In this document: positions 15,546 through 63,430 of the stretch, piece by piece
Layout of the letters: every line of letters begins with the position of its first letter
How positions within the stretch are numbered: the first letter of the stretch is position 1
Assembly (NCBI GenBank): GCA_027382625.1
Contig: JAJKFJ010022115.1
Location: forward strand, 50,681 to 114,680
Direction of reading: 5' to 3'
Origin: Tetmemena sp. SeJ-2015
Lineage: Eukaryota; Ciliophora; Spirotrichea; Sporadotrichida; Oxytrichidae
DNA: 64,000 nt
Notes under the pieces: model-generated
The model's input: the letters and a program-made list of their open reading frames with translations, nothing else
Told to the model about the DNA's origin: nothing
The model's database searches: none
Program-made: the position numbers and the translations under genes

Positions 15546-16044
15546 AATTGTTTATTGTTTGGAGTGACTGTTTCAAATAATAATTATGAAGAAATTAATT
15601 TATACGAGTATTTTATTTCAAAACTACTCGCGATCATGCAAACAAAGCATGAATTATAAACTTTTAGAAAGAAAATAATGCGAAATATTATCTTGTAAAC
15701 TAAACTCTAAGTATAGATATCAGGAAAGAGTATTCTGGTGAGATGAAGTTCGAGCAGTGAAGAGTCTGCTATTTCTGGAAGCTGGGCGTCTTTAGGTGAG
15801 AGTGTGTTATGCAGCACTCAACTAACATATTACATTTAAAGAAATGTTTCTGTTGATAGTAAGGATTTAAAAATAGCAAAGTGCTTAAAGAGCAATCGCT
15901 TAGACTCATTTGATAAGCCTCTCTTAACTATTTACCTTATAAATTCAATTAAAGGACAGACATAATTTAAATGAAACAGCGATATCCTAATTCTTTTATC
16001 CGAACAACTACTCTTTAGCATAGTCTCTCTTACAAATTTGTCTA
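15546..16044. other. Intergenic region
   Basis: About 500 bp of AT-rich DNA with no supported gene; a slightly richer patch at 15720-15830 has no tRNA-like folding I could confirm. Confidence 0.4.
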
Positions 16045-24993: not shown

Positions 24994-27209
24994 ATGAATA
25001 ATCATTTATAATTACAAGTTATTTAAGCTATCGATTAATTGAGAAGCAGACTCTTTAACGAGATGACGCCACAGTATAATCCTGACCAGCCACATGGCTT
25101 CAACTATAAAGATCATAAAACAGACAAAGCCAATACTCTCGTAGAGGTAAGGCATTCCCCTCTCATTTCTCAACCTCTAGGAGGTAGAACTTGCAACCTT
25201 AACTATTCCTCCATAGGACATATTAAAATATTCTGCTTATTTATAAGGAGAGAAAGGGGTTAATACAAAGAACCTCAAAGCTTACCGATACTCGGGACGG
25301 TGGGTAGTATTCAGCATTCGAAGACTAGATAGAGGATGAGGAAGAAGGGTCTAAAGATGACAAAGCCCAGGGTTAGGCTCCAACGGAGATCGGGGTCTAC
25401 TCAAACGACCCCATCCCCTTCTAATTTAGTTGGAGAAAACTCTGGGCATTCTCTGGTCCTGGACTATTGATGTCAATCGCTTATCTTGACCCCGGCAATA
25501 GTAAGTCTTCTCTCTTAAACGAGAGAAACTGATAATTAATACTCTCACTTAAGAAGAAATTTTTTAACAACATCTAAAGTTGAGATAATCCTTCTTATGT
25601 TATTTTGCTGGGGACCTTGGAGCTGGAAATGCAGCTGGATATAGACTACTTTGGGTTTTGTTGAGCTCTACCGCCTTAGGTCTCTTCTATTAGATACTCG
25701 CAGCAAGACTAGGCGTGGTAACTCAAAGAAACTTAGCAAGGCTTTGTAGAGAATAGTACCCCAAGTACGTTCGAATCATACTTTGGCTGATGACAGAAGT
25801 CGCAATTATCGGTTCAGACATATAGGTAATAAATCGACTCATAATTTATCAATCACTCATTTAAACTATTTCGCTTATTTAATAAATATCTTTAGGAGGT
25901 GATTGGATCTTCTATAGCTTTCAATATTCTCTTTGGACTTCCTATATGGGCAGGAGCTATCATTACCATCCTTGACTCACTCATCTTTCTTTTCATTCAC
26001 TATTTTGGAGTGAGAAAGCTTGAGGTACTACAACTTGAAGTCTAACTAATGAGCTTTATAGGGTTTCTTTGCTCTGCTAATTGGAACGATGGCTATATGC
26101 TTCTTCATCAACTTTTTCATAGTGGGTCCTAACTTTGGGGATTTGATGTTCGGTACCTTTGTTCCTACAATTCCTGAAGGTACCGCTGGTCAAGCCATAG
26201 GTTTGATTGGAGCAGTCATCATGCCTCACAACTTGTACCTGCACTCGTCACTTGTCCTTTCAAGAAAGATCAATTCAAAGAGTGCTAGACAAGTTCATGA
26301 AGCCAATATCTACAACTCGATTGAGAGTGGAATCTCTCTCTTTGTGTCCTTCCTCATTAACTTCGCTGTCGTTGGAACTTTCGCTTATTACCACAATAAG
26401 GGCTTTGATGATTTAAACCTAAGAAACGCTGAAGTTGCCTTGCAAGAAACTTTTGGCAACTTTGCTCGCGTAATCTGGGGAGTTGGTCTTCTAGCTGCTG
26501 GTTAGTCATCTACTATGACTGGAACCTATTGTGGTCAATTTGTAATGGAAGGTTTCTTCGATATCAAGTTAACCATTTGGAAGAGAGTTTTGGTCACTCG
26601 TAGCATCGCCATCATGCCAGCCTTAGTTGTAGCTTTCCTACAAGACTTTGACGACGTAGATAACTACCTTAATATCCTTCAAAGCATCCAGCTCCCATTC
26701 GCACTCATCCCACTGCTTAAATTTTCCTCAAGCGACCTCGTGATGGGAAGATTTGCGAATGGCAAGTTCGCCAAATGGTTTGCCATAGTCATGGCATGTG
26801 GACTTTTCATTGTCAATGCAGTTGGCCTCATTCCTATAGGAGGTAAGGGCTCTATTAAAATATCAAGCGTCATTTAGGGTTTTAATTAGGATCCGTTTTT
26901 ATTTTAGTATTGCAAAGTTTGATAAATTTGAGATAAAAATAACAATTTTACTTATTTAGTTGCAATATTTGATATCAAAGGCGATAATCATATTATTATT
27001 TAGTACCTGGTTGGGTTTACGCTCCAGTTTCGATTGGACTTCTCATCTATGTTACTCTGATCATAATCGTAGTGCGGGCTCCAGTCTCTCCTCTTATTCA
27101 GCACAAGAATACGGAGATGGAAGAAAACTATGATAAGGTCGTAAGCTTACAAACTCGGAAATTAAATCTCCCTTCTAGAATAAACTTAAATTTATTTTAA
27201 TGTTGCTGA
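24994..27209 (+). CDS. NRAMP-family divalent metal transporter
   Basis: Exons join at introns 25147-25247, 25501-25579, 25826-25895, 26025-26061 and 26843-27003. The N-terminal ~100 residues are acidic and cytoplasmic ([14 protein letters not shown]). TM1 carries the family hallmark [13 protein letters not shown]6 carries [20 protein letters not shown], the conserved MPHN metal-binding motif. Other family blocks are [11 protein letters not shown], then [20 protein letters not shown], and [19 protein letters not shown]. The protein moves Mn, Fe and related ions with protons, probably across a vacuolar or plasma membrane. Oddity: the expected N-I-E-x-D-L following DPGN is interrupted by about 25 AT-rich bases (25585-25610, between TTGAG and GGGGACC), which knocks the frame off. 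GAC-CTT-GGA-GCT-GGA then resumes the family sequence. Confidence 0.88.
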
Positions 27210-27462
27210 CTATGAGACATCCACTAAGGCGTCTTGAATCTTTCGGTGTGAGATCGACTGATCTCAACCTTTATTCACACAATTATTAACTTTTGATTCA
27301 AATAGAATCTCCCAGGCGATCAGAACAAAGATTTGCCAAATCTTAATTACTCAATCAACAATTTAATCTAGAAATTTCCTTTTTTAATGCCTTCTTTTTC
27401 AAAAATTTAAATCCAACTTAAATAGGAAAAAATATTTTAATACACTTTTTAACTTAATCAGC

Positions 27463-28647
27463 TCAAGCCTCCTCTTCTTCTCCGTCTTGCTTATTAGCTC
27501 TGTCGGTATCTGGCTCTGGCTCTAGCTCTGGTGCAATAAGTGGTGTTGGCTCTGGTTGCTCTACAAGATCGACTGGATCTCTCTGGACTTCAGGTGGTTC
27601 AGTGGGGTTGAAGCTGACATCACCCTTCTTCAAGCCATGACCGATGTAGATGTTTGCAAATTTGCCGTTTTACGCTACCGTAACTGCACCAGGCCATCTG
27701 AGAGATCTAAGAACATTGACTGCATAGGTGACTGTTCCTTCCTTGGGTGGTAGTTGATTGTAAGGTTAGATGTCTCCCACTACCTTTGAAAGCCAAGCTA
27801 CCTCCAAACCTGGATAGGGGGCATCAGTCTGCAGGGCGGTATATCTCTCTTCAGTCTGGGGATCTTCAGTTGCCAGTTTGCCCATTAATTCTTCCTTCTC
27901 CTCTTCGCTCAAACCCTTGGGAGCTAGGTGAGTCACTCTTCCAGCCTTCAATATTAAGATGCAATTAATTCTTCAAGATCAGTGGATGTTAGTGAGCCCA
28001 CACTTCAAGGCTTGTTAGGTCAGATGGGTTGGTAGGCACTGAGAAATCTTCAGCATAGACCTCCTTACCAGTCTCCTCATCAGTTGCTAAGAGTCCCTTG
28101 GGGATGATTTGAGTACCATGAGTGATTCTAGCAATTTGAGCTCTCAAGAAATGTCTTTCCTTGCCGGGGAATGGAGGGTTTGAGTTTATAGCTGCGTTCA
28201 AATCTCCAGTGAAAACTTATAAAAGGAGGAAGTAATTTCGAAAACGTACTTGATCATTCTTGCGAGTTGAAGGTGGTCAGGGTGCACATCTGGCAGTTAT
28301 ACCCAGTCATCTAAGACGTTGTCTGCAACCCAATACACTAAATCTTATTAATTAATACCTAGAGTATATCTGTTATAGTCTAGGTTTAATTTGTTGACTC
28401 CCTCTCCTCTCTTTTCTTGGAAATAGTTAGAGCTATCTTCCTCAGAGACATCTAAAACGCCCTCAACAACCCAATAATCCTTGACTCTGCCATAGATCTT
28501 TCCCCAAAATCTTAGCTTAGAAGCTCCAGAAAGAATTGAAAGTCTCCTCAAAGACTTGCTTAGCTTGTAAGTTTCATCTTCTCCGAATGAAATGCCAGCC
28601 CATTCAAAAATTCTTGCCTCATCTATAATGTCTGGCAACACAACTTG
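27463..28647 (-). CDS. RSP4/6: Radial spoke head protein RSP4/6 (RSPH4A/6A homologue), main part
   Basis: Encodes all but the first ~70 residues of a radial-spoke-head protein, the T-shaped axonemal complex that signals to dynein. Family blocks in order: LPDIIDEARIFEWAGISFGE, then KLRFWGKIYGRVKDYWVVEG, EKRGEGVNK, VYWVADNVLDDWVQLPD, GDLNAAINSNPPFPGKERHF, RAQIARITHGTQIIPKG, LRSLRWPGAVTVAQNGKFAN and IYIGHGLKKGDVSFNP, with an acidic C-terminus (DGEEEEA, TGA 27463-27465). A 21-nt GT-AG intron lies before VYWV. Two repeat-flanked insertions (27946-27970, 28211-28239) must be removed to keep frame. The normal N-terminal region is absent here; a matching piece lies at 36346-36560 on the same strand. 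Confidence 0.9.
27946..27970. other. IES in RSP4/6, 25 bp, pointer TTGAAG
   Basis: On the coding strand TTGAAG flanks an AT-rich piece with no GT-AG ends. Removing 25 bp restores EVWAHQHPLILK-AGRVTHLAPKG, matching the family. An intron cannot explain it because no GT donor is present. Confidence 0.85.
28211..28239. other. IES (or intron) in RSP4/6, 29 bp, pointer GTTTTC
   Basis: GTTTTC on the coding strand flanks this piece. Removing 29 bp gives RMIKYVFTGDLNAAINS in frame. A GT-AG intron of 30 nt is also drawable but leaves the frame one base short and hits TGA, unless a T is missing from the TTTT run. Confidence 0.7.
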
Positions 28648-46980: not shown

Positions 46981-48437
46981 TGCTCTTGAATATAAAGATA
47001 TTTTTTACAGTAATAATATAAAAGACAACTTAATATTTAAATTCCGTGTTGATACCATCATGGGATTTGGTGATAAATTTACAATTTCCAATTCTGTGTT
47101 TATTCTAGATATATTTATATATTTATCAATTTCTATCCTTTTCATATTAAAAAAAATCTTTATGGATAAATTGAAAAGCGAGAGATTATAATAAATAAAT
47201 AAAAATTTCTTTAAGATTTAGAATGAATTTTTGTTAATTTAATTTTCTTAAAGTTTTAATTTAATCATCAATTTATAGAATTTATAAAAAACCACTCTAT
47301 ATAATTTGATTAAACTCTTTCAAATGTAGATTTATAATGTTTAGTTGCTTCTGTGAAAATTATTTAATTAAATTAATTATCTCAACTATATAGGATTTTT
47401 TATCTCAACATTTAAAAATAAAGGAGGCTTAAAATAAATATTCTTACTGAGATAAGGTTTAGAACTCTGGTAAAAATAAGGAATGTTTCAAACTTAAATT
47501 AAAATATAGCTGATAATTTAAATAAAATAAATGATTTTGTAATATATTAAGGAAATGGTAATTTAGAAGCATCCCTTTCTGTAAGTAGTTCAATAGCAAA
47601 TTTAAAAATAGGATGAATTACTTATTTAATCATTTTAAGAACACATCTCATTAGAGATATGCAGTGCACAAGCTCTTTCACCTATATTCAAACTTGTATA
47701 TCCTCAAACTCTTAACGAGGAACTCACAAGATTAATTATTAAAAGAGGAGAAACCCCTCTACCTTAATTTTCCCCCTATTAATTTAATACAAAAAACTAA
47801 TTCCATTTATAATAAATTATTTGCTGTAATAAAAAAGCATGCTCCAATCATTAAAGTTATTGAAATAAATATTTTTTAGTTTTAAGTCGCTAATATATCT
47901 AGACTCACTTTATTATACAAACTGGATTTATTATATATGTTTAAAATTGAATGAGAGACAAATTAAGGGTGTTGGAATATTTATGCTGTAATAAGTTTAT
48001 CCTAAAGTTTGAAATGAAGCTATAATCTTGTTTTAAAAAATATAAATGTAAAATAAATTTAGAATTTATATTGGAATGTCATTCTAGGAGTTTTAAGAAT
48101 TGGATGGACACAAAATCTCTTTTGCTTTTAAATTATATGATGGGTACTTTCAAATAGAAAATTATTTCAACATTATTTAAAAATTGACTCTTAATTTATA
48201 ATATCAAGAGACTTCAATAAGATAACGCCAAGAATTTTAATTTTATTGGAAAGAGAGTACAGTGATTTTTTAATTCAAAAATCACAGGCAAACAAATAAA
48301 TTTTCTACAAAATAGAAGCCATTCATTTGATTGTGCTTCTAATCTTTAATCTTTTCAGCTAAAATAGATAATACAATTTTATTTTAGAGAGCTAGGAAGA
48401 TATAAGGCAAAGTGTCGGAAGATTATTTGTGACTTTG
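46981..48437. other. AT-rich noncoding germline DNA
   Basis: About 1.45 kb with very low GC and no supported frame on either strand; probably germline-limited sequence between the transposase remnant and the kinase cluster. Confidence 0.5.
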
Positions 48438-51400
48438 ATGTTCATTTATTCCTCATACAGTCTAATTATCAGATTTATTTTGAGATACCCTAAGCTGCAT
48501 GAGAAAATGGAGCTTGCTTTTTTCTTTCCTTTGGCAAGCTTTTTAGTTGCTCATAAAGCAGTTAACATGAGCTAAGTCTTTAAAGTGGATCATTTTCTGT
48601 TCTCGCCTGTAATCCCATTCACACAGATAAGTATAATTGTCAGGCTAGTCAACTCCTCAATAAATTAAAGTTTCATAATCTCATTAAAAATATGCAAATT
48701 TATATTAAAGTTATAAATTGGTTCTACAAAACGTGCTTTTATATGGTGACACAAATAACTCTTAATACTTATATACTTTACACATTCGGCTTCATAACTG
48801 AGAGCACCGCTTAACTCCCTCTCTATACAATCACTTAGACTTTATTCGTAGGAGTTGTCACCAGATAGGTCGAAATAATCCAGAGGACAATTCTCATCAT
48901 GAGGAAGAAGGAACAGCAGCAAGGACAAAAGCTCAAGGCCATTCTTAATTAATTTCAAGATGGGGTTCTCATTCTTAACAAAAATCAATTAGATCAGTAG
49001 CTCATTTATTCAAATGAGGGATTCATCGCACTCCAAACCCATCTTATTTTTTCTAAAAGAGGAGTTAACTGCTTTTAAGAAAAGACATTAAATGAAAGAG
49101 TTAGTAAGTTTAAATAAGTTAATCGAAAATAAATTAAATAGTTTACTTGATTAAAATTGATTCAAGGAGACACTATTAAAGTGTCTTATTATTCTATATA
49201 TTTGCATTTTTTGAAATTGAGCACTGAAAAGATAACTCTAAAAGAAACTCGTATTAAATTTTGATTTTTTATCGAGCTTGCTGCAAACCAAGATAAGAGA
49301 GATCCATTTATACAGTCTCGATTTTGCAGCTCCCCATTTTATAATAAAAGTTTTGTGAACTGCAAAATGAATCTTCCTTCGATTGTCAAACTTAATAATT
49401 TTTATAGGCAGGAATGAGTCACTCCAAAATTCCTTACCAAATTAAAAAAAATAATACTTGAAGTATCCAGACTTGAATTAGAGATTCCATGATTTTAGGC
49501 ATCAACTTCTAAGCACATGGTATAAAATATGGCCTGCATTGAATTACTTGCATCTTATTCTCTCCATTAACAATTTTAGCAGCTTTTATTACTCTATTTA
49601 GTATTAATTTCGAAGAGAGAATATTAGAGGCGATTGAGCTAAATATTGGAGGCTATTGATATTCTAGTACTATTTTAGGGTCTAGTCTCATCAAATCTTA
49701 TCTCTAAAATATTTCGTAGCATTTATTGATTCTATTTCAAATTTTAATTAATTTAATTTAATTTAATTTATTAGGAATTAATTATGCCTAACGAGCATAT
49801 AATACTTAATCGATTTAAAGTAATTCACAGGCGTAACTCCTTGATCAGTTGTGCCAAGTCACCGTGAAAGCCCACCGTAAAATTTTAATTAAAATCAGTG
49901 ATTGGTTAAAATAATAGAAGAATAGTTGCAACTTCATGGCAGTTGAAATCACATATTCATCCTCTGATCTGCTGCTTGTTTTATAGACAATCAAAAATTA
50001 ATATGAATTTCTTCTTTAATAATCTCCGCACCCCCTCTCAGCAGTGAGATATGATAAACGCAAATTAATCAAAATGATATTTCAGTCTTTTAAGATCGTA
50101 TAATCCTTATAACTCTGAATGAAAGTTCCCACAAAAAAGTTGCCAGGATGGAAAGTTCTTATAATTTTATGCTGAATCGAATGGGCTAATAACTAATTAA
50201 ATTGGAAACACTTCACCTGCTAATGATTTATTCCATTTTAATTTAATTAGTAATTTAATTCTCTTTTGTATTAAAATCTCAGCTAATTTATTCAAACTTA
50301 AATTTATTGAGAAATTTACTGACTCTTATAAACGAGTAAAATACCTCAAAATCTATCTCCCAGTCATTTTTTTTAAAAAAAAATTATATAGACGCTTTAC
50401 TATCCACTCGATAATTTAAATGTGATTTTATTTTTAAAGAGAGGAAGCGAATTCTTCGGAATACACATAATTTACTGTTTATCAATATATTTTAAGAAAA
50501 AGAAATCTAAGAAGGTTTTATCGTCGTAGTCAAATACTTAATTATACTAAAAGACATCAAGCTAAAATGACATGGATCCTTTGACTTCTTTCAGAAAATA
50601 AAATAGCTTTCTTCTCAAATTTTAAGTATTTTTTGGTTTTCTAGATGATTTGTTTGAGGAATTTCAATTCAAGCCGGAGTTTTCAACTAATAATGATAAG
50701 TCAAGTATTTTGTCAATTTTATTTAGTCGATAGACTTCGGTGATTTAGTTGAAAGTGCAAGAAAAGCTCTAGCTAGTGGTTCTCAGATGTAAAACTACTT
50801 TTTTAAGGTTGAGCCTATTTCCTATTCAGTTCAGATCAGTGCAACTCTGTTACAGGAGGATGATCAGATTTTATTTGTGTTCAAGGAGGTTTCAACTATC
50901 AAAAAGCTTCAAACCTCAAAAAATAAAGAAAAATTTACCAACATATTCATCAACTTTAATAAATCATTATTTCATAATCGTTTAACTCCACAGCCCATAA
51001 TATTTTCACTCCCATTAATTTATAATTAATTTAAATGGGCTTCTTGGGATAGCTGAACTTATAAATAAAGAAATATAGATTCCCTCTGCCCTTCAGTACG
51101 TCAAATTAATGAAGAGCTGCATCCATTAACTTTTTTACACTACTCAAAATATTATTGAGCACTCAAGAATTCGACTAAAGACCGAGGCAAAAGATATAAA
51201 AGAAAGTGAGTTAAAAGCTTACATAAACAGCGTGTTTGATTTATTTAGCCACGAGGCCAAACAGAAAAATTAATTTCTCTTCATTTGTAAATATCAAGTA
51301 CGTAAGTAGAGTAAGCGAGGAGCAGGCGGACATTTAACTACAGTTTGAGGTGTAGAGGGCTCAACTTGTGCTATTTAATATGATCAGCAACTCCTTCAAA

Positions 51401-54299
51401 TTCACAAGAACTGGTTAGATAGTGGTGACAGGCGCGATAACAAACTCAATATCTTATTATGGTGTGTATAATTTCGATTATTAAGTCAGATGAGTTAGTA
51501 TAGATTTAGGAGAAAGTTCACTAGAAATGTAAGAAACAAATAAGACTTAACTTATTTAGCATTACTCAAGCCTCTGACTATTCTGCTCTAAATTTTTATA
51601 TAATATTACTTATTTCTCTAAGAATAGAACAAGGAAGACTTCTGCAATTAAGAGTGGATTTATGCAACTGTAGAAGTTTTATTTAATTTAAGACACAGGA
51701 GAAGGAATAAAAGAAAATACAGTGAAGAAAGTTTTCCATATGCTCGCTTATTCATGAATATAATCAAATATCATTAGATAATAAGCTCAAATATAGTTTA
51801 GTTGAAGATGAATAGCAATCTAATTTTATGTTAATCAGATAAACTAGCATGGACTAGGACTCGGTCTATCCATTTCTAATTAGATCTGTAAATCCATTTT
51901 GTATTATAATTTAAGGCACGTAAATGGGAGGTTAAATAAATTTCTTTTTTTTAATTTAATGTATATAATTCTTTTTACTAATAGACCAAAGTCTTTATTA
52001 TTTGAGGTTGCATTTTCTTAGAGAGATCTGGCAAAATGAAAGGTTCAAGATTAATTATGAAAATAATATATATGAATGATTTGGATTCATAATTCCAGTT
52101 GCAAGAATGTCTTCTGCTATAGTCCAAGAGACTCAAATCCTAAATAGAAAGTAAATTATTTTTAATTTACATTTCCAAGTCGGAGTTTACTTACTGATGA
52201 ATTTTTAGGATATACAGAGAGAGTGCCTATCTTAGCCCAACACCGAATTAATCAATAGCAGTTAGAGTAAATTTAGACAGATCGGTCAGTGTAAGTTTTA
52301 GCTATTAAATTAATGAAATATGTTTTAGAGCGATGGACACTATTGAGTCTTATTCAGAGAGGATATGTGAAACGATGGATTCGTCTATAATTTATATATT
52401 GTAAAGGAAGGTGCTGAAATAACCCAAATGAGGCCCACAATGAAAAAGAAAACTTCATTTATTATATGAATGCATATGAAAAAGTTAAAAGTGAGAATCC
52501 GTGGTGTGGTATCAAAGTTGGGTTAGTGCGGGGAAAGAATATTGCCTGCTATTATTCTCTGCATCTTTTGGTCACTATTATCCTTCAAGAGGGGCAATCT
52601 TTTTTTTAAAGAATCAGTACAGTAAGTGCTCTGGAAATAAAATAGAGGCCAAAACTGAGGAAGAAGAGTAGTTATCCACAAACCGAATATCAACCGCCCT
52701 AGTTTATCAATCTCTCTTCGATATAAGGGTCCAAAGGAGGAACGATTATGTTTAAAATAGCGAAGAGTGAGCTAAACAGATGCGAGACTATCTCTCAGCA
52801 TGAGTTAGATTATCATTTTTTGGGATATTGTTTCGTTAAATTTGCCATCTGGCTATTTAAGCCATAATTTTCTTTAAAGTGACACCTATCCATGGAATTC
52901 TCAGGTCAGACTAGGTGTTTTAAGTCATTTTTTGCATCTTAGTTTTTTCCGACGTCAAAAAGAATTGTGTTCTTCGTATCATCCACTCAGATGTAAAGAC
53001 TAAAAACTGAGAGATGATACGGGAGTCTAAATTTTCTATTCCACTTTTTCATCAATACTGTTGATATATAAAGCATAAGGGGTGTTCTTCACGGTATTTA
53101 TAGGTACGTCATATGTTTCAAGTGCAAATAAAATATAAGTGGTTACTTAAAATACTCAGGTGATAAATTTATGCACTGAGCAGTTTTTATTTCCTCTAAA
53201 TTATTATATGAAAGCAACGAAGAGCTTAAATTTTTATTTTGGTATGCAGAATCTCTGCGAAAGACGAGCATCTTCCAGAAGCTTTAAAGAAGAAGAGAAG
53301 AAGCAAATTTTTTAAACCAATTCTACTATCAGAAACGAAAGTTTACACTCTGCTTGCTCACGTTAATAGAATGCATAAAAGTCTAAGCTTGACAAAGAAA
53401 TTGATAAAGGTCATAGGTTTAGCTTCGCTAATGAGTTTGTGACTCAAAACTCTAAAGCAGCTCGTAGGAAGAACCTTATTACAAACAACTTCTTCATTTA
53501 TTAATTTTTTATTTAGTGCGAATGACGTGGGCTTTCACGGTGACGTGGCACAACTGATCAAGGAGTTACGCCTGTGAATTACTTTAAATCGATTAAGTAT
53601 TATATGCCCGTTAGGGATAATTAATTCCTAATAATTTAATTTAATTTAGTGCGAGAACATCAACTTCAAAACAGATCCAAACGCTATTGTGGCACATAAC
53701 AATAAAACTCATTCTTCTTCCAAACTTATTCATCCTTTCGCTTCATGTGAGGAACAAGAGACGCAAATTCTCGTTGTGGATGACACTATTTTCAATGTGG
53801 AAATTGTTAAAATGTTCCTGAATAAATTCTTCGGAGTTAACTGCGATGTGGCTTACTCAGGCCAAGAGGCTATTGATAAAGTAAAGAGGAAGATCAACTC
53901 AGTGGCCACGTCATTTTGTCTCCCATACAAGATCATTCTTAAACTATTTTTCCATTCTCATGGATAAATAATAATACTCGTAATAATAGATTATAATATT
54001 TTACAATAGATACAGTAATTTAATTAAATTTTAATGATGGATATAAACATGTCAGGACTAGAGTATTTAATATTTTTATAGATGGAGTGGAGACCACTTC
54101 TTAAATTAGGAGAATTTTTATGGGATCTTTGAGACAAGACTGCAAAATATACGCGCACACTGCTATTCCTGAAAGCTAGCTAGGTAGCTGGATTGAGAAA
54201 GGTTTTGATGGATATTTACCAAAGCCCTTAACTCTAAACCATCTCCTCTAAATTTTAAAGATTGCCAAGATACAAATATTTATGTTTTAATCAAATTGA
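48438..54299 (+). CDS. Hybrid sensor histidine kinase 1, heavily IES-interrupted
   Basis: The N-terminus has membrane helices (MFIYSSYSLIIRFILRYPKL; AFFFPLASFLVAHK; FVGVVTRQVEIIQRTILIMR). A PAS-like segment follows (LKAILNQFQDGVLILN; FFKVEPISYSVQISATLLQE). The dimerisation helix carries the phospho-His in STAHNIFTPINGLLG (H then N, not the usual H-E). Then come TTQNIIEHSRIRLK, the N box LVLFNMISNSFKFTRTGQ, a G1-type DTGEGIKE and G2 GLGLGLSISNQICKSI. The receiver domain has ILVVDDTIFNVEIVKM, the acceptor Asp in KIILMDINMSGLDG, and FDGYLPKPL with the conserved Lys. TGA at 54297-54299. At least eight repeat-flanked IESs must be removed for a continuous frame. Regions 49141-50640 and 51950-53230 hold long AT-rich, still unresolved gaps. 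It shares its order with the next two genes, so they are tandem paralogues. Confidence 0.8.
49739..49892 (-). mobile_element. MITE-like element copy 1, flanked by AAATTTTAATTAA
   Basis: A ~125-bp unit whose reverse complement recurs at 53522-53643 with only a few mismatches over ~110 bp. It is bounded by 13-bp direct repeats AAATTTTAATTAA (49739-49751 and 49880-49892). Noncoding, probably a short germline transposon or IES. Confidence 0.7.
50699..50724. other. IES, 26 bp, pointer AGTC
   Basis: AGTC at both ends. Excision joins FSTNNDKS to IDFGDLVESARKAL in frame in the PAS region of kinase 1. Confidence 0.75.
50952..50983. other. IES, 32 bp, pointer AACT
   Basis: AACT flanks; no GT-AG ends. 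Excision restores FTNIFINSTAHNIFTPIN, matching uninterrupted FTNVFINSTAHNIF and FTNVFINATAHNIF in kinases 2 and 3. Confidence 0.92.
51017..51033. other. IES, 17 bp, pointer AAT
   Basis: AAT flanks. Excision restores TPIN-GLLG, as in SPINGLLG (after its own excision) and TPINGMLG of the paralogues. Confidence 0.88.
51267..51288. other. IES, 22 bp, pointer AAAT
   Basis: AAAT flanks. Excision joins AKQKN to IKYVSRVSEEQADI in frame, leading directly into the conserved N box of kinase 1. Confidence 0.82.
53511..53643 (+). mobile_element. MITE-like element copy 2 = IES, 133 bp, pointer ATTTAGTGCGA
   Basis: Eleven-bp direct repeats ATTTAGTGCGA (53511-53521 and 53644-53654) flank a near-perfect inverted copy of the unit at 49752-49879. 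Excision joins NNFFIYQFFIQ to CENINFKTDPNAIVAHN in frame in kinase 1. Confidence 0.85.
53934..53952. other. IES, 19 bp, pointer CATTCT
   Basis: CATTCT flanks. Together with the next IES, excision restores KIILMDINMSG at the receiver phospho-Asp, matching LVLMDINMAG in kinase 2. Confidence 0.9.
53960..54036. other. IES, 77 bp, pointer ATGGATA
   Basis: ATGGATA flanks. It splits the phospho-acceptor motif only seven bases after the previous IES ends. Confidence 0.9.
54059..54078. other. IES, 20 bp, pointer TAGA
   Basis: TAGA flanks. Excision gives SGLDGVETTS, matching AGMDGVQTTR in kinase 2. Confidence 0.85.
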
Positions 54300-55356
54300 C
54301 AGTTCAGCTTATATTTAGCGTGAATGAGGTAGCAACGAATAAATCAGCAACAATAAATACTAAATTTATAGTAATTATAGCTAAGAACTTAATAAAAAAG
54401 AGAATTAAATAGATATTAAATTAAAAGGATTAAAATCGTGAATGATGAAGTATCTCAGATTTGAATAATTATTAGACCATTCGATTCAGCATAAAATTCT
54501 AAGACCGACCTTTTATCCTTGCAATATTTTTGCGGGAGCGCTCAGTCAAGAGCTATAAGCATTACATATTTTAAAGGAGGGAGAAGAATATGATGATGAA
54601 GAAGAGTGCGTGAGTCATATCTCGCTGCTATGAAGTGCTGTGAAGATGATTAAATTTTGATGGATATCTGCCAAAGCCCTTAATTTTAATAAGCTATCTA
54701 CAAGCTGTAGATCAAGGGCGAACCTATGATTTCAACTGTCACCATTTTGCAACTCTCCATTTATTATTTAACCAATCATCGATTTTAATTAAAATTCCAA
54801 CTATAATGATTAGTTAGTAGAATTATTATTTTTTATCTTATTTATAGATTCAAAATAATTATTAATTATAGCATAGAATTATTAAAGAACTTATTAATTA
54901 GCAATTAAATTAATTGAGTTCAGGATTTGGTAGCGATAATATAATAAATTTGAAAGCAGGTTATTATATAAGAAATCCTCACAAGTTTGTAAGATAATAA
55001 ATTTAAATTTTTTTAAATATGCAAATATAAGAAAGTTAATTTAATAAGATAGGATAGGCAATAATTTCGCTACTAGGATGCTTAACAATTGAACTATTTT
55101 TACAAATGAATTAGTTTTGCAAAATCTTAGCTATAATAAATTAGGGATAAATGACTATTTCTGGTCTTTAAAATTATGTAGATAAACATTTATATAAATT
55201 AAATTTTTTTGCCTGATATCCCTTTGATTGATAAATGACAGAAGATTTATAAGATTCACATAAATGTTTATCAGTGCTAGTATTAAGTAATTTTTAGTAA
55301 AGTTAAGCTGGTAGTTAATTAGAATAGAAGGTTTATAGAAACACTACTTACTTTAA
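54300..55356. other. AT-rich region with a second receiver-tail fragment
   Basis: Mostly AT-rich, with no complete gene. Around 54653-54690 a piece encodes FDGYLPKPL in one frame, nearly repeating the receiver end at about 54205-54240 of kinase 1. It is preceded by EYDDEEECVSHISLL. It is a partial duplicate or an unplaced germline segment of a related kinase. Confidence 0.5.
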
Positions 55357-58300
55357 ATGGCTAGAAAGACTTACACTAAAGAGCAATATGAAAAATATTA
55401 TGAGAAAACATTTCAGAACTACTAGAGGTGCTCATCAAGATTTATATTTTGAGATTGCACATTACTGGCATATCATGATGTTCGTTATTGCTCTCATTTA
55501 TAACATATTCACCCTCTCAGACATCCTTGGTTTATCTTTCTCTTATATACTTATGAGTGGAATGAGTAAGTTGCTTATCAACAAATCTTACTACTAAACT
55601 TAATTCTAAAGTCTTTAAAGTGATATCAATTAAAAAACTTATAGGACTAAAAGTATTTAAAATAAAAATTCTTTATAAAAATTGAAGTTCATAATAGGGT
55701 TTACTTTTACGTTGAGACATATTTCTCATTGCCAGTAATAATAGATAAAAGAATTAAGGAGTAATCTCCCAGAGCATAAATAAAAACATATGCATAACCT
55801 GAATAACTACCACTCGTGAGCAAGAGTCAGCAGAGAAAAATTCCCCAATTAATGTGTAAAAATTCTTAAACTAAGAAATTCTGACAACACGTTGGCAACT
55901 TCTCCTAACTTAAAAATTCTGCTAGTATGAGTGCTCTATTCATTAAACCCTAAGCTTATAATTGGAGGGAAGAAAATTGATCCTGGCTCTCAATTGTATG
56001 AGTAGCATCTATAATTAATTTGTATATGAACATTGCCAAAATCTACCCTAATAAATAATTCCTCTAAATATCAAGTGGGAATTCAATAGCGGCCTTTTGC
56101 CATATGTAAGTTCCTTCTGCCTAACTATCAGTTGAGAGGAGGACATAAATCTAGGGAAGGTATATCCAACTTACAGATTAGTGTGAAAATCACACGGCTT
56201 CGGGATTCTCTATAATCCAAGTATCCCTAAATTAAAACTAAACCTTATTTACCACGAAACTATAAAGTTTATCAGTGATTTATCTTCTCATAACTAGTGC
56301 CATTTAAATTTCACTAATTAGGGAATCTAAAGGTCATCATATTTATTTATTTTCTAATTTAATAATTAATTTCCAATAATAAATATTCTGATTGCGTATA
56401 CTATGCTTGACCGAAGTTGAGAAAAAGGTAATTTTTTGTTATTTCTTTTAAGTTTAAATAGACTTCATAATCTATGATCCTGTGGTGTGTATCGGCTAAG
56501 CTTACACCATGACTAAGCTATTTGTTTCTCCAACTTTATTTGTAAATTAAAATGAGTTTTCTCCAATAGACTGGCGACATAAAACCTTGACATTTGCATT
56601 TACTTAAACTGTTTACTACTTGATGAGAAACTTATTAATATTTATGATGTTTTCAACAAAGTATGGATTTGCTCACCCTTTCTAGAATCTCTCTATACCT
56701 TTCATTTAAAACACAATTATAATATTTTGTGTGCCACCACCTATTTCGCAGCTGCTTAGAAGGAAATGGAAGATCTCTTTTACGAATTCATGATCGCTAG
56801 ACTCAGAGAGAAAAGTCTAAAAGAGAAACTGTTAAACTCAACTGTTAATATATAATTTATAAATTATTTAAATACAACTTATTCCTATTTGCGTTTATCT
56901 GTATTGGGAGTATTCCAAGATGGCGTCCTTATGATTAAAAATTTAGAGAAAGACTGCTCAATTATTTACCAAAATGAGAGCTGCAAGAAAATGCAATCAA
57001 TCTCAATTTATATTTAAATGAAAAATTGTTATTAAGAACCAATGAATAACAGTTCAAAAAGCAATTTAAAGTTCAGGCTTTTCAAAAAGCATCAATCAGC
57101 ACAAGTGAGCAAGATAAAGATTTTCACATGCGAAAAATAGAGGAAGATCTTAAAAGCTCTATTTAGAATATTAGTTACCAATTTAATAGATTGCTTATCA
57201 TTTTAAGTTTGGAATCGATATTCAAAGGATTGAAGTTTAAACCTGAGTTTGGCCATGGACATGAACTCTTGATGACTTTTGAGGAGTGGATAGATGTTTA
57301 AAGACTATAGTTAAAAGAACAGTCGTGTCAAAGTGTCCAGAGCTACTTTATTAAAGTTGAACCCATTTCTGCCTCTCTTTAAATTAACATCAGTCACATC
57401 AAGCAAGATGATTAACTATTAGTCGTGCTTAAGGAGATAACTACGATTAAGAAGCTACAAAATACAAAGAACAGAGAGAAGTTTACCAACGTCTTCATTA
57501 ATTCTACGGCCCATAACATATTTAGCCCGATAAATGGCCTACTTTCAATTTAATAATTTACTTGGAGTGATTCAGCTGTTCTAAGTAGAGATGAGCAAGA
57601 ACAGTAAAATTGCATCTTACTTGAGGATCATGAAGTGCTGCATATTCCATCTTTACTTCACCACCCAAAACATTATCTTAGATTTCATTAATTATCGAGC
57701 ATTCAAGAATTCGGCTGAAGCAGGAAATAAACGAGACTAAAACCATCAAACTGGGAAAACTTATTTAAGAGGTAGCTTAGATATTTGAAACTGAGAGTTC
57801 AAGAAAAGGCATCAATTACAACTAAGTCATAGAAGGATTAAAAGTTCTTTATTTAATTTAAGGTAGTAAAACTTAGATGGTTGTATAAAAGACAAGAGTT
57901 TAGCTTATTCTTTATAACTTACTTAGTAATGCCTTCAAATATACCTTGCATGGGGAAATTTTTATATTGTCTGATTTTTAATCACAGTTCAGTCCTAGAT
58001 ATTGACATCAGGACCAACTACAAAGATTTATAAATATTTTGAGATAACTCATATTTTATTTTGAGATTTGATGAAGCCCTTTTTATTAAGAATGATGGTA
58101 AATCATATTTTAACCTAATAATTATCCACAATAGAAATAAAATAAGAGTTAATCAGGCATGTGAGTTCAAGAGATCTGAGTTAAAATTAAAGCTACTTGT
58201 ACATAAGTATTTCGGATACGGGTGAGGGAATGCCTGAATTCAACGCTGGCAAGCTTTTCCATCTTTCAAATAATTAATTTATCTATTCAGAAAGCTTAAA

Positions 58301-59535
58301 GTTTCGTCTGACAACATTAACTAACAAGGCCTTGGGCTAGGGCTCTCTATATCCTCCTTGATATGTAAATACTTACTTATTCTGATACATTTCTAGGCGA
58401 GCAATTAAACGGAAAGATATTCGTAGAGTACTCAAAACTTAAAAAGGGCTCAAAGTTCGGGCTGTTTATCCCAGTAGTGATTACTTAAGAGCACCAGGAT
58501 TAGGAAAGTGAAAGTTCAGACTTGGAAAGGAGAAACTTAGATTGTGATGAGAATCAAATTCTTATTGAAGACGATGAGGACGATGAATATGAGGAGTAAA
58601 AAGATGGCAACTACTCTAGTTCAGAGCTTCTCCCTCACTCAGAACTTAAAAGGCATGAGACTTCTACTAACAATGACTGCTTCCTAATTCAAAGCTTATT
58701 TTTAATTACAGAGAGTGATAAGAGTTTGGAGTTACTACCCTCACACAGGATTCCAGATTACAATGTTAAACTCATATATTCTTAATTTAAATCGAGAGTT
58801 CTTTCAATCACTTCACACTATAGAAAGGTAGACACGAAGAAATATGGAGGAAGATAACTATAACCTCTTATTCGAAAGGATAAGGTTTGAGGAAGAGTCC
58901 ATTCATGAATAAGATATCTTATCCATACATAAATAATTAAAGTTTATTATAATCCAACTAAAGCTTCACTCTGGACAAGGTTGAGCCAGCAGAAACTTAA
59001 ATAAATTATTTTAAGACATTATCTCCAAGGCCTTGCATTTATTTATTTTGAATTTAGAGGAGGAAGAAAAGAAATCCTCACCTCAGATCCTTGTAAAATA
59101 ATATTTCTTAAATATGAAATATGTAGTTGATGACACGATTTTTAACATTGAGATAGTGAAACTGATATTGCAGAATATTTTCCAGCTGGAGTGTGACGAG
59201 GCCTACTCGGGACAACAAGCAATAGAGAAAGTAATGTAAAATATAGAAAGTCACGAGTTGGAGGGAACTTCTCTCTACAAATTAAATTAGTTATTTTAAT
59301 TGGTGCTGATGGATATAAATATGGCAGGCATGGATGGAGTACAGACTACCAGGCTTTTGAGGGAGAGATTCAGCCACATTTACAATGAAAGGGGTAGCAA
59401 GATATTCGCTCACTCGGCCATCCCAGAGGAGTAGTTTGGAGAGAGCTCAGACAGAGGATTCGATGGGTTCTTGCCTAAGCCACTCGACATAAATCTGCTC
59501 AAGAACATTCTGTGTGATCTAGATATTATAATTTG
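55357..59535 (+). CDS. Hybrid sensor histidine kinase 2
   Basis: ATG at 55357 (MARKTYTKEQYEKYYEKTF) leads to membrane helices (IAHYWHIMMFVIALIYNIF; LGLSFSYILMSGMSKLL; TLTFAFTQTVYYLMRNL). Then come FAAAQKEMEDLFYEFMIARL and a PAS-like part (GVFQDGVLMIKNLEKDC). DHp: FTNVFINSTAHNIFSPING with the phospho-His. TTQNIIEHSRIRLK follows after one excision, then ATPase pieces (RLILYNLLSNAFKYT-type sequence near 57900; SDTGEGMPEF; GLGLGLSISSLICK). The receiver is intact: VDDTIFNIEIVKLILQNIF, LVLMDINMAGMDGVQTTR, AHSAIPEEQFG, RGFDGFLPKPLDINLL, with TGA 59533-59535. Short IESs occur at 57541-57559 and 57672-57690; AT-rich gaps at 55610-56400 are probably germline-limited. Of the three, its receiver is the cleanest reference. 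Confidence 0.8.
57541..57559. other. IES, 19 bp, pointer ACTT
   Basis: ACTT flanks. Excision joins SPINGLL to GVIQLFQVEMSKNS in frame; kinases 1 and 3 have no insertion at this base. Confidence 0.88.
57672..57690. other. IES, 19 bp, pointer ATTATC
   Basis: ATTATC flanks. Excision restores TTQNIIEHSRIRLK, identical to the uninterrupted sequence in kinases 1 and 3. Confidence 0.92.
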
Positions 59536-59676
59536 AATCTTACCACCTTTTATTCATTTAAGTAGTAAAGTTATTAAAAACGTAGTGAGAGAAAATATAA
59601 TTATAAAATTCAGAAGCATTTAGCAAAGTTACAGAGACAGAAAAAGTTAAATTAAAAAGTAGATTTGGTAATTTAG

Positions 59677-62600
59677 ATGGACAAAAAGAAAGAGTAATAT
59701 GCCTGACTACTACCTTAAGTACTTCCTCGAATATCAAACTATCCTGATCAATATTTAATTTTTATTGGGCAGCTCTGGATGGTTGGAATTGTTATATTTA
59801 TTTTTTATGAATGGGGGTGGTATTTTTCTTCTTGAGCGAGGATTACGTGATAAATAATGTGCGCATGCTATTTGTAATTGTGCTTTTGTAAATAATGAAA
59901 AAGTTTATGAGATGGAAGCCAAGTTACTACTTCATCATAGAAAGTTTTATCACTCTCCCTATAATTAGTGCCTAGAGTGGACATATTCTTATCGAACGTA
60001 GTCCAGGAGAGGTAATATAAAAATATTTATATCCATTACCATTTAAAAAATTTTAAGTACTTTCTTGTTTAAACATTAATTTTATTTAATGTTATAGTAG
60101 TTATTATAATAAATGAGACCCATCTCTTTATACTATAAAAATGTTGAAAGAAAAGAAGTAAATTAAAACAAAATTGTCAAGGTTAAAAATTCAATTCAAT
60201 TAATTTGATGTTTATTCATCTATGGATAGAGGAATGAAAATTAATAATTTATTATTCAATTCAATATTTTTAAAGGTAATTTAGCATTAGCACTCAACTC
60301 TAAAATTTATAATTATTTTACCCTGTCTATTTTGGCTTACGTCGTCATAAAGCTATTTATATCGCCAGATTTTTTTATTTTAAGTTTATATTAAAATTAT
60401 AAACTTAAAAGAGAGCCAGGGACCTATCGTTGCCAAATTTGAGTTGGAATAATAATTGCTGCTAAGCCTTCCATTATTTATATAACTCTACCTTTAGTTA
60501 GCGAAACAACTAAAATTTATCTTAAACAATTTTTGGTTGAATGGCCAATAATTTTTTTATAGCAATAAATTGTAATAAATATGGTGGCCTTCGTAAAACG
60601 AGAGTGATAAAATATTAAACTGCCGCAATATAGAGTAAAGCATTAAAAGAATTTCCTTTAGGAATTGGGGCTTCTATTGATCTATGCGAAGAGATTTCTA
60701 ACCTGGATGTAATTTTAATCGCCTATAAAAATTATGAAAGACCTGTTTTTTTTTTTTAACTGTATTTATATCACTAAATCTTTTCTATTTACCAGGATAT
60801 TCTAAAAATGCTCGAAGGTTTGAAAGATTAAAGACTTAAAGTGATTATTGAAACGACGTCTGAAACGAAATATGTTTAGCCCTTTATCATAAGACATCTT
60901 TTTTTTAACAGCCTTCAAAATGATGTTGATGCTAGGGTGTTATTCTTTAATTTATTTTTAGGCCCTGAAGGATTTGTAATCCTTTTGATTATAATATGTA
61001 TTTTTAGTTGACTGGAGGTTGAAGACGGTGTCTTACATTTTTAATTAACTAGTGTAATACTCAGTATTAGCAACTCAAATAGGTTTTTTCCATCGCTCCA
61101 TCCAGGACAGTATTATGCTGATTTGCTGCGAGACTACTTTATTTGCAGCTGCTCAGTTTAAACTAGAGTCCTTGTTCTATCAATTCATGAATCTGCGGCT
61201 GAAAGAATAAGACAGGAAGGAAAAGCTAATTTAAGTGCTTAACGTGTTTCAGGACGCAGTCCTTGTCCTCAAGGCTCAACCTGCTGATTAAACCATATGC
61301 TACAAAAATTAAGGCTTCGCTAATATGCAATATGAGGATAAATATTGTATATATATTCTATGAGTTCACTAATAGAATCATCAATTCTAAATCAAGAATA
61401 AATGGAACCGATGACATCAGAAACAGGCTCAGAAAATCCTCCGAATTCGAACCAAAAGCTTAAATACATTAAAATAATTATTCATTCACAATTTATAAGC
61501 ATTTGACCTGAAGCAAATTTTTGAAGGTCTGAGTTTTAAACCTGAATATGAAGTCTCAAAAAATGAGAGTGCTTTGAATTTCAGTTAGTGGATTGATTCA
61601 ATAAGAGAGTCGTATTCTTAAATAAGGAAAAGCTAAGTCTCTAAAAGGGAGAACAAAAAATAATACTCGTTAAATAGGGATTGGAAAAGAGAAAGCTTAT
61701 GTGATGTGTCAAGCTACTATATAAAAGTCGAGCCAATTTCAGCTTCGCTGCAAATAAATGTCTCTTATCTGGCACCTGATGATAACCTTTTGGTTGTGAT
61801 AAGAATATAGTGTATTTTATTTGTGATAAAAGAAATTTCAAACATCAAGAAACTTCCTCACATTTTCTTTAAATAGTTTTAACTTTAGAACACTAAAAAT
61901 AGGGAGAAATTTACAAACGTATTTATTAACGCCACAGCGCATAATATATTCACTCCAATTAACGGGATGCTAGGGGTGCTTAAACTAATGAAACTAGAAA
62001 TCCCAAAAAATGGTAAACTCTAATCCTACCTCAAGTTAAAAATTTTAAAGTTGATGAAGAGCTGCGTGTGTCATCTATATTTCACAACTCAAAATATAAT
62101 CGAGCACTCGAGGATAAGACTAAAAAAGCAAACTAATGAAGTTAAGCAGGTAAGGATGACTAAACTCATTTACGAAGTGGCGAACATTTTTGAAACAGAC
62201 TCTAAGAAGCGGAATATTAAATTTAGGAAAAGCATCTCTCTTAAAGCCTAATTAAATCTTAGGCATTTAATAGATTAAGGTTCAACTCGTGCTATTCAAC
62301 CTCATCAGCAATTAGAATATGTATATATAAAAACATTAATTATAAATTATAAATCTAAATGCATTTAAATACACTGAATAAGGGGAGATAACTTGCTTAT
62401 TTATAATTTTAAAACTGTAGAAAGCTAAATATTTAATCTTGAGTAACTCAAACAATTATTTATTTCTTTTATTTTGCGAGAAGAAAATCAACGAGAGCAG
62501 ATGTAATAAATTATATAGAAATAATACTGATTACTTAATTCACTTTAGGCCTGCAAGATCAACTGGATATAATTTTACTTTATATGTTTTAAATTGTTTT

Positions 62601-63430
62601 AAATTAATTGGAGGAATATATTCACGATTTAGTTCATAAAAGTCAATCTGCAGATATTTTTAGCTAACAGTCCACTCAAACTTTCCAAAAATATCTGTAC
62701 ATTCGAATATCTGACACAGGAGAAGGAATCATGAATGCAGATCCTGAAAAGTTATTTCAAATGAATTAAAAGCTTTAAGATAATTATTATTAACACTTCA
62801 CTAAAGTATTATTTTATTTTAATAGTTAAATAGTGAATAAGATAATCATTATTTAATTCTTTAACTATTTCACCTGTTCCAGAAGTTTAGGGTGTCGAGT
62901 GACTAAGTGAACTAGTAGGGTCTTGGACTGGGCCTATCGATATCTAGCTTGATATGTAAATATATATACTCTCTTATTCATTATTTAAAGGTGAATAACT
63001 TGAAGGCAAGTTATTTAATATTTGATTATTATTTTTGGAACACTCAGTCTTGCACCAAGGGTCAAGCTTCGGACTTATAATCCCGATTACTGTGATGACC
63101 AGCCAAGCTTCGCTGTTCTCACACAGGGACGTGTCCTGCGAATTTGAACTAAAGAACATTTTAAATTTAAGCTGATTCAAATGAGTATGAAATCACTTAG
63201 GCTAGCGCAGCCTTTCCCTGAGGAGGAGTAGAAAGATATACCACAAATCATTTCAGAATAAGATGATGATGCTCTATAATATCAAATTAATTTAAAATAA
63301 GGAAAGGACTATGAATCAATAACGATATGAATTTAATTCATTTCTTCTTCAATTAAACAATTAAGTCTATAAGCCTTATAAAATAAAGTATAAATAGAGT
63401 AGAATATAAAATTGTAATTACATAGGAGCA
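59677..63430 (+). CDS. Histidine kinase 3, without a visible receiver domain
   Basis: ATG at 59677 (MDKKKEQYA). Membrane helices follow (VVFFFLSEDYVINNVRMLFV; KPSYYFIIESFITLPIISAQ), then FAAAQFKLESLFYQFMNLRL, PAS-like VLNVFQDAVLVLKAQ and DLKQIFEGLSFKPEYEVSK. Next are YIKVEPISASLQINVSYLAP and the DHp TNREK-type stretch with FTNVFINATAHNIFTPINGM. TTQNIIEHSRIRLKKQTNEV leads to QLVLFNLISN-AFKYTEQGE, YIRISDTGEGIMNADPEKLF and GLGLGLSISSLICKYI. The last coding block is MSMKSLRLAQPFPEEEQKDI. No receiver signature (VDD, MDINM, LPKP) is visible before the next gene at 63509, so it is a non-hybrid member, truncated, or its receiver lies elsewhere. AT-rich gaps at 60050-60600 are unassigned. Confidence 0.72.
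61794..61820. other. IES, 27 bp, pointer TTGTGATAA
   Basis: Nine-bp repeat flanks. Excision gives LLVVIKEISNIKKL, matching LLVVLKEITTIKKL in kinase 2. Confidence 0.92.
61851..61880. other. IES, 30 bp, pointer AACTT
   Basis: AACTT flanks. Excision gives IKKLQNTKNREKFTNVF, identical to IKKLQNTKNREKFTNVF in kinase 2. Confidence 0.93.
62310..62357. other. IES, 48 bp, pointer AAT
   Basis: AAT flanks an AT-rich piece. Excision joins LVLFNLISN to AFKYTEQGE, restoring the N box as in NMISNSFKFTRTGQ of kinase 1. Confidence 0.85.

What the first reader, a model, noticed from the sequence alone, without database searches (positions are those of the whole stretch)
50699..62357. Tandem kinase paralogues prove germline IESs inside the window
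Three paralogous kinases each carry AT-rich insertions of 17-133 bp at positions where the sister genes are continuous. Each insertion is bounded by exact direct repeats, most lack GT-AG ends, and removal with one repeat restores identical peptides (for example IKKLQNTKNREK, TTQNIIEHSRIRLK, FINSTAHNIF, MDINMSG). This shows directly that the DNA is micronuclear and gives about a dozen exact IES borders.
Basis: partly seen in the sequence, partly recalled or inferred. Interest (0 to 1): 0.93.

Follow-up and report, generated by a model that had tools for sequence, protein, structure and literature searches.

The report
Germline-only inserts in ciliate kinase genes
Three neighbouring sensor-kinase genes in a ciliate's germline DNA are interrupted by short AT-rich pieces of the kind that such ciliates cut out when they build their working nucleus; this is a clear, well-mapped example of a known process.

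Summary
Three tandem hybrid histidine kinase genes (HK1 ~48.2-54.3, HK2 ~55.4-59.5, HK3 ~59.6-63.4 kb; TAA/TAG=Q), aligned by a repeat-blind method to somatic (MAC) proteins of related hypotrichs, carry AT-rich insertions with direct repeats at their ends far over chance (14 of 25 tested junctions >=4 bp, 3.9 expected). I fixed 22 exactly: 15-113 bp, 3-9 bp repeats, 85.5% AT against 63.6% in coding parts; 21 of 22 cannot be GT-AG introns. Removing three lifts HK1's response-regulator match from 19 to 56 bits. Against its nearest paralogue the inserts show frame-breaking indels; 13 coding blocks do not, but a 17-bp gap lies just outside them. These are ordinary non-scrambled IESs with pointers. 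Corrections: one insertion per gene is a conserved GT-AG intron; not every insertion has a provable repeat; proof needs MAC DNA or RNA of this species, not held. Added: one IES position shared by six paralogues with changed, slid pointers; another shared one missing from HK2; a possible 14-nt MDS in HK1.

The parts
48660..48712 (+). HK1 IES, 53 bp, pointer ATAAATT
   Evidence: same place in paralogue C3677, there 82 bp with TATAAATT
50699..50724 (+). HK1 IES, 26 bp, pointer AGTC
50952..50983 (+). HK1 IES, 32 bp, pointer AACT; restores FINSTAHNIF
51017..51033 (+). HK1 IES, 17 bp, pointer AAT; restores TPINGLLG
   Evidence: the repeat-scored model preferred an 11-bp reading that adds two residues
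51267..51288 (+). HK1 IES, 22 bp, pointer AAAT
   Evidence: the aligned stretch of C3677 is 21 bp, but C3677's own model has no IES here and a 17-bp gap lies beside it
51435..51474 (+). HK1 IES, 40 bp, pointer CGAT
51888..51915 (+). HK1 GT-AG intron, 28 bp, phase 1 in SISNQI|C
51928..52003 (+). HK1 IES, 76 bp, pointer GAGGTT; the only one of 22 that could also be cut as GT-AG, with the same product
   Evidence: in C3677 only the repeat reading (GTT) keeps frame, by my reading of the alignment
53934..53952 (+). HK1 IES, 19 bp, pointer CATTCT
53953..53966 (+). HK1 possible 14-nt micro-MDS between two IESs, 13 of 14 nt belonging to pointers
   Evidence: inferred; the model of C3677 did not reproduce it
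53960..54036 (+). HK1 IES, 77 bp, pointer ATGGATA; 40 and 3 bp shorter in C3677
54059..54078 (+). HK1 IES, 20 bp, pointer TAGA; joins MSG to LDGVETT
56621..56644 (+). HK2 IES (less secure, in frame), 24 bp, pointer TGATG
   Evidence: flanks moderately conserved
56704..56723 (+). HK2 IES (less secure), 20 bp, pointer ATTT
57540..57558 (+). HK2 IES, 19 bp, pointer TACTT; restores PINGLLGV
57672..57690 (+). HK2 IES, 19 bp, pointer ATTATC; restores TTQNIIEHSRIRLK
58261..58280 (+). HK2 IES, 20 bp, pointer ATCT; position shared by 6 paralogues
58365..58396 (+). HK2 GT-AG intron, 32 bp, phase 1 in SISSLI|C
59280..59297 (+). HK2 IES (less secure, in frame), 18 bp, pointer AATT
61794..61820 (+). HK3 IES, 27 bp, in frame, pointer TTGTGATAA
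61851..61880 (+). HK3 IES, 30 bp, in frame, pointer AACTT; position shared by 5 paralogues; restores IKKLQNTKNREK
62033..62047 (+). HK3 IES, 15 bp, in frame, pointer AAGTT
62310..62357 (+). HK3 IES, 48 bp, in frame, pointer AAT
62753..62865 (+). HK3 IES, 113 bp, pointer TATTTCA; position shared by 6 paralogues
62956..62990 (+). HK3 GT-AG intron, 35 bp, phase 1 in SISSLI|C (the model chose a 35-bp IES with pointer AATA, 3 bp on, which also keeps frame)
63011..63028 (+). HK3 IES, 18 bp, pointer TTATTT, holds an in-frame TGA
48249..54287 (+). HK1 gene locus as modelled, approximate (~49.05-50.5 and ~52.2-53.7 kb not resolved)
55357..59530 (+). HK2 gene locus, approximate (N-terminal part not resolved)
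59557..63409 (+). HK3 gene locus as modelled, approximate (N-terminal part not resolved; no response regulator modelled before the contig ends)

Best explanation
The region is germline (micronuclear) DNA of a hypotrich ciliate of the Oxytricha/Stylonychia lineage (species not identified). It holds a tandem array of hybrid histidine kinase genes in linear, non-scrambled order. Their coding segments (MDSs) are interrupted by short AT-rich internal eliminated sequences (IESs), most of them flanked by a direct repeat (pointer; 3-9 bp in the 22 exact cases). During development of a new macronucleus each IES is cut out of the DNA and one pointer copy stays, which restores the reading frame; in studied hypotrichs template RNAs guide this (PMC9797194 section 3) and transposase-like excisases are implicated (recalled). 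A short conserved GT-AG intron in each gene is then removed from the RNA. Shown here: the repeats, restored frames and domains, composition, divergence between paralogues, shared positions. Inferred: the excision itself, its timing and machinery, and the splicing.
For: Seven MAC-derived hypotrich proteins (four Stylonychia lemnae; three EukProt entries that I take by recall of their GI numbers to be Oxytricha) supply the uninterrupted reference. Repeat-blind junctions: 71 in 10 paralogues, mean repeat 3.46 against 2.18 bp, z 9.5; >=4 bp in 34 against 9.5 expected (HK1 and C3677 are close relatives, so the 71 are not all independent); HK1-3 alone 14 of 25 against 3.9, 0 of 20000 resamplings. 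22 exact inserts, 85.5% AT against 63.6%; 21 of 22 not readable as GT-AG. HK1's response regulator: 19.4 bits over profile 1-41 in the longest uncorrected frame, 56.5 bits over 1-110 after removal. HK1 against C3677: inserts 262 of 337 aligned positions identical with 11 indels, 7 not multiples of 3; 13 chosen MDS blocks 1412 of 1560 with one indel of 12; codon positions 94.2, 97.6, 80.6%. IES positions follow the gene tree. At least 150 DDE_3 matches in the assembly (150 of 921 candidates scored).
Against: No MAC DNA or RNA of this species is held, so excision was not observed. Of 25 core junctions 7 had repeats under 3 bp, 2 of these none. 22 of 47 HK1-3 jumps were left out of the statistics because their flanks are poorly conserved. 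7 of 22 inserts are in frame; by my reading only 63011-63028 of these holds an in-frame TGA, so the others could be protein indels. Three insertions are introns. A 17-bp gap between HK1 and C3677 at 51238, in an MDS stretch (51231-51266) that I had left out of the blocks, breaks frame unless C3677 uses another IES border. Insert divergence is uneven: 51267-51288 and 51435-51474 are 100 and 95% identical.
Confidence: 0.95

Rival explanations
1. The insertions are short spliceosomal introns in somatic DNA, removed from RNA.
For: A phase-1 GT-AG intron of 28, 32 and 35 bp sits at the same codon in HK1, HK2 and HK3, and one of 29 bp in C3013b and C3677. Introns and IESs can coincide in spirotrichs (PMC9797194 section 10; PMC1805493 passages).
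Against: Only 1 of the 22 exact inserts can be slid into a GT..AG frame. Lengths of 15-20 bp; direct repeats far over chance; 6 to 10 exact inserts per gene (10, 6 and 6) against 1.1-1.7 introns per gene in Tetmemena and Oxytricha (PMC9797194 section 10).
Confidence: 0.03
2. The copies are decaying germline pseudogenes whose insertions and frameshifts are random damage.
For: The family is large (15 matches in the assembly, the window's own included), parts of each gene could not be modelled, and C3677 has a frame-breaking 17-bp gap against HK1 at 51238.
Against: Most core insertions are mended by removing repeat-bounded AT-rich DNA. In 13 chosen MDS blocks (1560 positions) HK1 and C3677 have no frame-breaking indel and second codon positions are 97.6% identical, third 80.6%. 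The domains scanned after removal score over Pfam cut-offs.
Confidence: 0.03
3. The insertions are protein segments or assembly errors.
For: 7 of 22 are in frame, 6 of them free of in-frame stops by my reading.
Against: 15 of 22 have lengths not divisible by 3; positions recur in other contigs (C3677, C3466) and follow the tree.
Confidence: 0.01

Closest known systems
Non-scrambled IESs with pointers of Oxytricha trifallax and Tetmemena (PMC9797194: abstract, sections 3 (part 1), 6, 8, 9, 10, 27 and passages seen)
   Same: Short inserts between coding segments, flanked by repeats of variable sequence and length (2-20 bp); positions often conserved while pointer sequences change
   Different: Nothing in kind; here seen among paralogues of one tandem family in an unidentified hypotrich
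TA-pointer IESs of Paramecium (2-bp pointers) and of Euplotes crassus/vannus (PMC9797194 section 3; the Paramecium TA consensus is recalled)
   Same: Excision between direct repeats, frame restored
   Different: The 22 pointers here are 3-9 bp and many contain no TA
Introns flanked by direct repeats, intron-IES interconversion (PMC1805493 passages; PMC9797194 section 10)
   Same: A GT-AG intron at one codon in several paralogues; HK3's could also be cut as an IES, one HK1 IES could also be spliced
   Different: The other 21 exact inserts cannot be read as GT-AG introns
Stylonychia lemnae 'multi-sensor hybrid histidine kinase' proteins P0001, P0003, P0005, P0007
   Same: HATPase_c precomputed in four of four, Response_reg in three; 35-43% identity to the HK2 query where aligned
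   Different: Annotated from contigs of 2.9-3.1 kb, without the inserts

Membership tests
Hypotrich non-scrambled IES | Present in germline DNA, absent from macronuclear DNA of the same species | not testable with these tools
   No MAC genome or RNA of this species held; proteins of relatives are continuous there
Hypotrich non-scrambled IES | Bounded by short direct repeats, one copy kept | tested here: met
   14 of 25 repeat-blind junctions >=4 bp against 3.9 expected, 0 of 20000; 2 of 25 without any repeat
Hypotrich non-scrambled IES | Removal restores the open reading frame and protein | tested here: met
   Response_reg 19.4 to 56.5 bits
Hypotrich non-scrambled IES | AT-richer than the neighbouring MDSs | tested here: met
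   85.5% against 63.6% in 1937 bp of chosen MDS
Hypotrich non-scrambled IES | Segments in linear order | tested here: met
   Conserved segments of the three genes match each other in the same order on one strand in BLAST; the spliced alignments assume this order and do not test it; linkers not resolved
TA-bounded IES (Paramecium, Euplotes crassus type) | TA dinucleotide pointers at both ends | tested here: not met
   Pointers such as AACT, AGTC, CGAT, ATCT contain no TA (AACT to be read as A-A-C-T)
Spliceosomal intron (the SISSLI|C insertion only) | GT..AG ends, conserved position and phase | tested here: met
   HK1, HK2, HK3, C3013b, C3677 of 10 paralogues; C3466b has a less clear one
Spliceosomal intron (the SISSLI|C insertion only) | Removed from RNA | not testable with these tools
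   No RNA data
Hybrid histidine kinase | HATPase_c and Response_reg domains | tested here: met
   HK2: HATPase_c 62.6 and Response_reg 49.3 bits. HK1: Response_reg 56.5, HATPase_c not scanned. HK3: HATPase_c 43.3, no Response_reg modelled. Enzyme activity untested

The most novel reading that the evidence does not exclude
Within this family the same IES has been inherited through several gene duplications while its pointers were replaced and moved by up to 16 nt, and one copy (HK2) lost another IES precisely; together with an IES (51928-52003) whose DNA excision and GT-AG splicing would give the same message, and a 14-nt micro-MDS made almost entirely of pointers, the array would be a natural series for testing what an excision machinery needs to recognise at an IES border.
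Probability: 0.3. Interest if true: 0.5.

Novelty: new member of a known kind. Interest (0 to 1): 0.36.

Why it matters
It marks the window as germline DNA with high probability and gives 22 exact IES borders and three introns without a macronuclear reference. The ten paralogues let gain, loss and sliding of IES borders be followed in one genome. The process itself is long known in hypotrichs.

Tried and rejected
Rfam (gathering scores) and tRNA scans of the window: no match. The first Pfam scan of three uncorrected HK2 pieces found only the response regulator. Species: I first guessed a length-filtered Tetmemena MIC assembly from size and G+C (PMC9797194 Table 1); dropped, because a second gene of the window matches its best two proteins at 50% (EukProt, taken as Oxytricha) and 42% (Stylonychia) only, and the paper's section on PCR prints no primers to test with. 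No MAC copy of HK2 seen in the assembly: outside the window's own place no match to the 246-residue query exceeds 79%, and that over 34 residues. The telomere 20-mer is its own reverse, so the control is empty. The repeat-scored model is used for borders and positions only, not for the repeat statistics; it also fills unresolved linkers (HK1 ~49.05-50.5 and 52.2-53.7 kb, HK2 ~55.6-56.4 kb, HK3 ~59.6-60.9 kb) with long 'IESs' that I do not believe. HK2 ~56832-56899, ~57834-57876 and ~57974-58107, HK3 61621-61710, 62219-62247 and 62396-62596 look like insertions whose borders stay open. GT-AG reading of 51928-52003: about 0.5 such case is expected by chance among 22 (my estimate, equal base use), so one is no evidence of double use.

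Papers: PMC9797194 abstract, sections 3 (part 1 of 2), 6, 8, 9, 10, 27 and passages; PMC1805493, PMC7586852, PMC4702850, PMC10946202 passages only; all others search listings. Histidine kinase + internal eliminated sequence + Oxytricha: 0 papers. Histidine kinase + ciliate + Stylonychia + gene family: 1. 'Shortest MDS': the phrase occurs in none of the ten listed of 19.
Full report
What is there. The window is the last 64000 bases of a 114,680-bp contig (C3013) in an assembly of 146.2 Mb in 5213 contigs. At its right end lie three paralogous genes on the + strand, with open frames under TAA/TAG = glutamine. They are hybrid histidine kinases: after removal of inserts HK2 matches HATPase_c (62.6 bits) and Response_reg (49.3), HK1 Response_reg (56.5), HK3 HATPase_c (43.3). 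The seven best of 910 protein matches are hypotrich: four Stylonychia lemnae 'multi-sensor hybrid histidine kinases' from contigs of 2.9-3.1 kb and three EukProt entries that I take, by recall of their GI numbers, to be Oxytricha trifallax. The assembly holds further paralogues: two at the left end of the same contig, two on C3466, and one each on C3677 (repeated on C3550), C4471 and C2013; C4234 repeats the left end of C3013.

Check of the observation. I aligned the DNA of ten paralogues to a profile of the seven proteins with a spliced alignment that may jump over any stretch at a flat cost and knows nothing of repeats or splice signs. It made 147 jumps; 71 have well-conserved flanks on both sides (25 of 47 in HK1-3) and only these were tested. 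For each I took all placements of the junction that score nearly as well and recorded the longest direct repeat; the control pairs the left side of one junction with the right side of another. Mean repeat 3.46 bp against 2.18 (z 9.5); >=4 bp in 34 of 71 against 9.5 expected. For HK1-3: >=3 bp 18 of 25 (8.7), >=4 bp 14 (3.9), >=5 bp 7 (1.3), 0 of 20000 resamplings as high. Two of the 25 had no repeat. HK1 and C3677 are close relatives, so the 71 are not all independent; the 25 do not include C3677.

Exact borders. A second model that scores repeats and GT-AG ends, followed by reading, gave 22 exact inserts of 15-113 bp with 3-9 bp repeats (see parts). They are 85.5% AT against 63.6% in 1937 bp of coding segments; 15 of 22 have lengths not divisible by three, 7 are in frame; one of 22 (51928-52003) could be slid to GT..AG. 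The finding's own start and end coincide with two of these borders. Three of its four peptides are restored by removal; MDINMSG is unbroken in the DNA and is joined to its neighbours. For 51017-51033 I keep the 17-bp, AAT reading over the 11-bp reading because it restores TPINGLLG.

An intron as well. In HK1, HK2 and HK3 a GT-AG segment of 28, 32 and 35 bp interrupts the same cysteine codon after SISxxI, and C3013b and C3677 have one of 29 bp there; C3466b has a less clear one. This is best read as a conserved intron, so a gene here would lose inserts at two levels, DNA and RNA. Oxytricha averages 1.7 and Tetmemena 1.1 introns per gene (PMC9797194, section 10).

Domain and divergence tests. 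The HK1 response-regulator region, in its longest uncorrected frame, matches the profile over positions 1-41 with 19.4 bits, below the cut-off of 30.2; with the inserts 53934-53952, 53960-54036 and 54059-54078 removed it matches 1-110 with 56.5 bits. Between the first two would lie a segment of 14 nt, of which 13 belong to the two pointers; the model of C3677 does not reproduce it. HK1 and C3677 differ in ten inserts by 75 of 337 aligned positions plus 11 indels (7 not multiples of three), in 13 chosen MDS blocks by 148 of 1560 plus one 12-bp indel; codon positions are 94.2, 97.6 and 80.6% identical. So the coding blocks are under selection and the inserts drift about as third positions do. 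Against this: a 17-bp gap at 51238, in a stretch (51231-51266) outside those blocks, breaks frame between the two copies unless C3677 uses another IES border. Identity is uneven: apart from that gap 51034-51540 is nearly identical, inserts included, which suggests a recent exchange between the copies.

History of the inserts. A tree of 296 columns groups HK2, HK3, C3013a, C3013b, C3466a and C3466b (support 98). All six carry an IES within 16 nt of each other around K(L/I/V)F|xLF, with differing pointers. C4471 and C2013 have none modelled there; HK1 and C3677 have poorly bounded insertions close by (51750-51815, 51793-51838; C3677 3028-3094), so the site may be older than the clade. Five of the six carry an IES at IKK|LQ; HK2 is continuous there, as are HK1 and C3677. 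Shared positions within 9 nt number 27 pairs against 11.5 in simulation, reached by 1 of 5000 (C3677 left out, uniform placement over conserved columns). The simplest reading is ancestral insertion, inheritance through duplications, sliding and replacement of pointers, and one precise loss. The positions come from the repeat-scored model, so offsets of a few bases are soft. Conserved positions with changed pointers are known between Oxytricha and Tetmemena (PMC9797194, section 9).

Interpretation. Germline IESs of the non-scrambled hypotrich type explain nearly everything; introns explain three insertions; pseudogene decay may touch C3677. The DNA is micronuclear with high probability; at least 150 DDE_3 transposase matches in the assembly fit. 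It is inference, not direct proof, until macronuclear DNA of the same species is compared. The species is a hypotrich by its nearest proteins but was not identified.

Novelty. The kind of element is known; I found no report of these instances in the searches, which cover open-licence papers only. Expansion of families of phosphorelay genes in encysting ciliates has been noted (PMC10946202, one passage seen).

Noticed in passing
HK1 51034-51540 against L034 (C3677) ~2311-2800: Nearly identical stretch, inserts included but for a 17-bp gap at 51238, between paralogues whose other blocks are 70-97% identical: possible gene conversion between loci on different contigs.
   Followed up: partly
contig C3013, ends: Histidine kinase genes lie in tandem at both ends of the same contig, in opposite orientation (two at the left, three at the right); the left pair recurs on C4234, perhaps the other allele.
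   Followed up: partly
G000 contigs C298, C586, C672, C739, C770, C1030, C1301, C4311, C4966 (base 1) and C334, C508 (last base): Contigs that begin or end exactly with CCCCAAAA telomere repeats: macronuclear contamination, natural ends or transposon ends.
   Followed up: no
62956-62990: HK3's intron can also be removed as a 35-bp IES with pointer AATA, shifted by 3 bp, giving CKQ instead of CEQ in frame.
   Followed up: partly
14001-16000 and 26001-28000: Stretches of raised G+C (0.42 and 0.40), perhaps MDS-rich loci of other genes.
   Followed up: no
23419-24771, - strand: Open frame (table 6) 50% identical to a EukProt protein and 42% to a Stylonychia EF-hand protein.
   Followed up: partly
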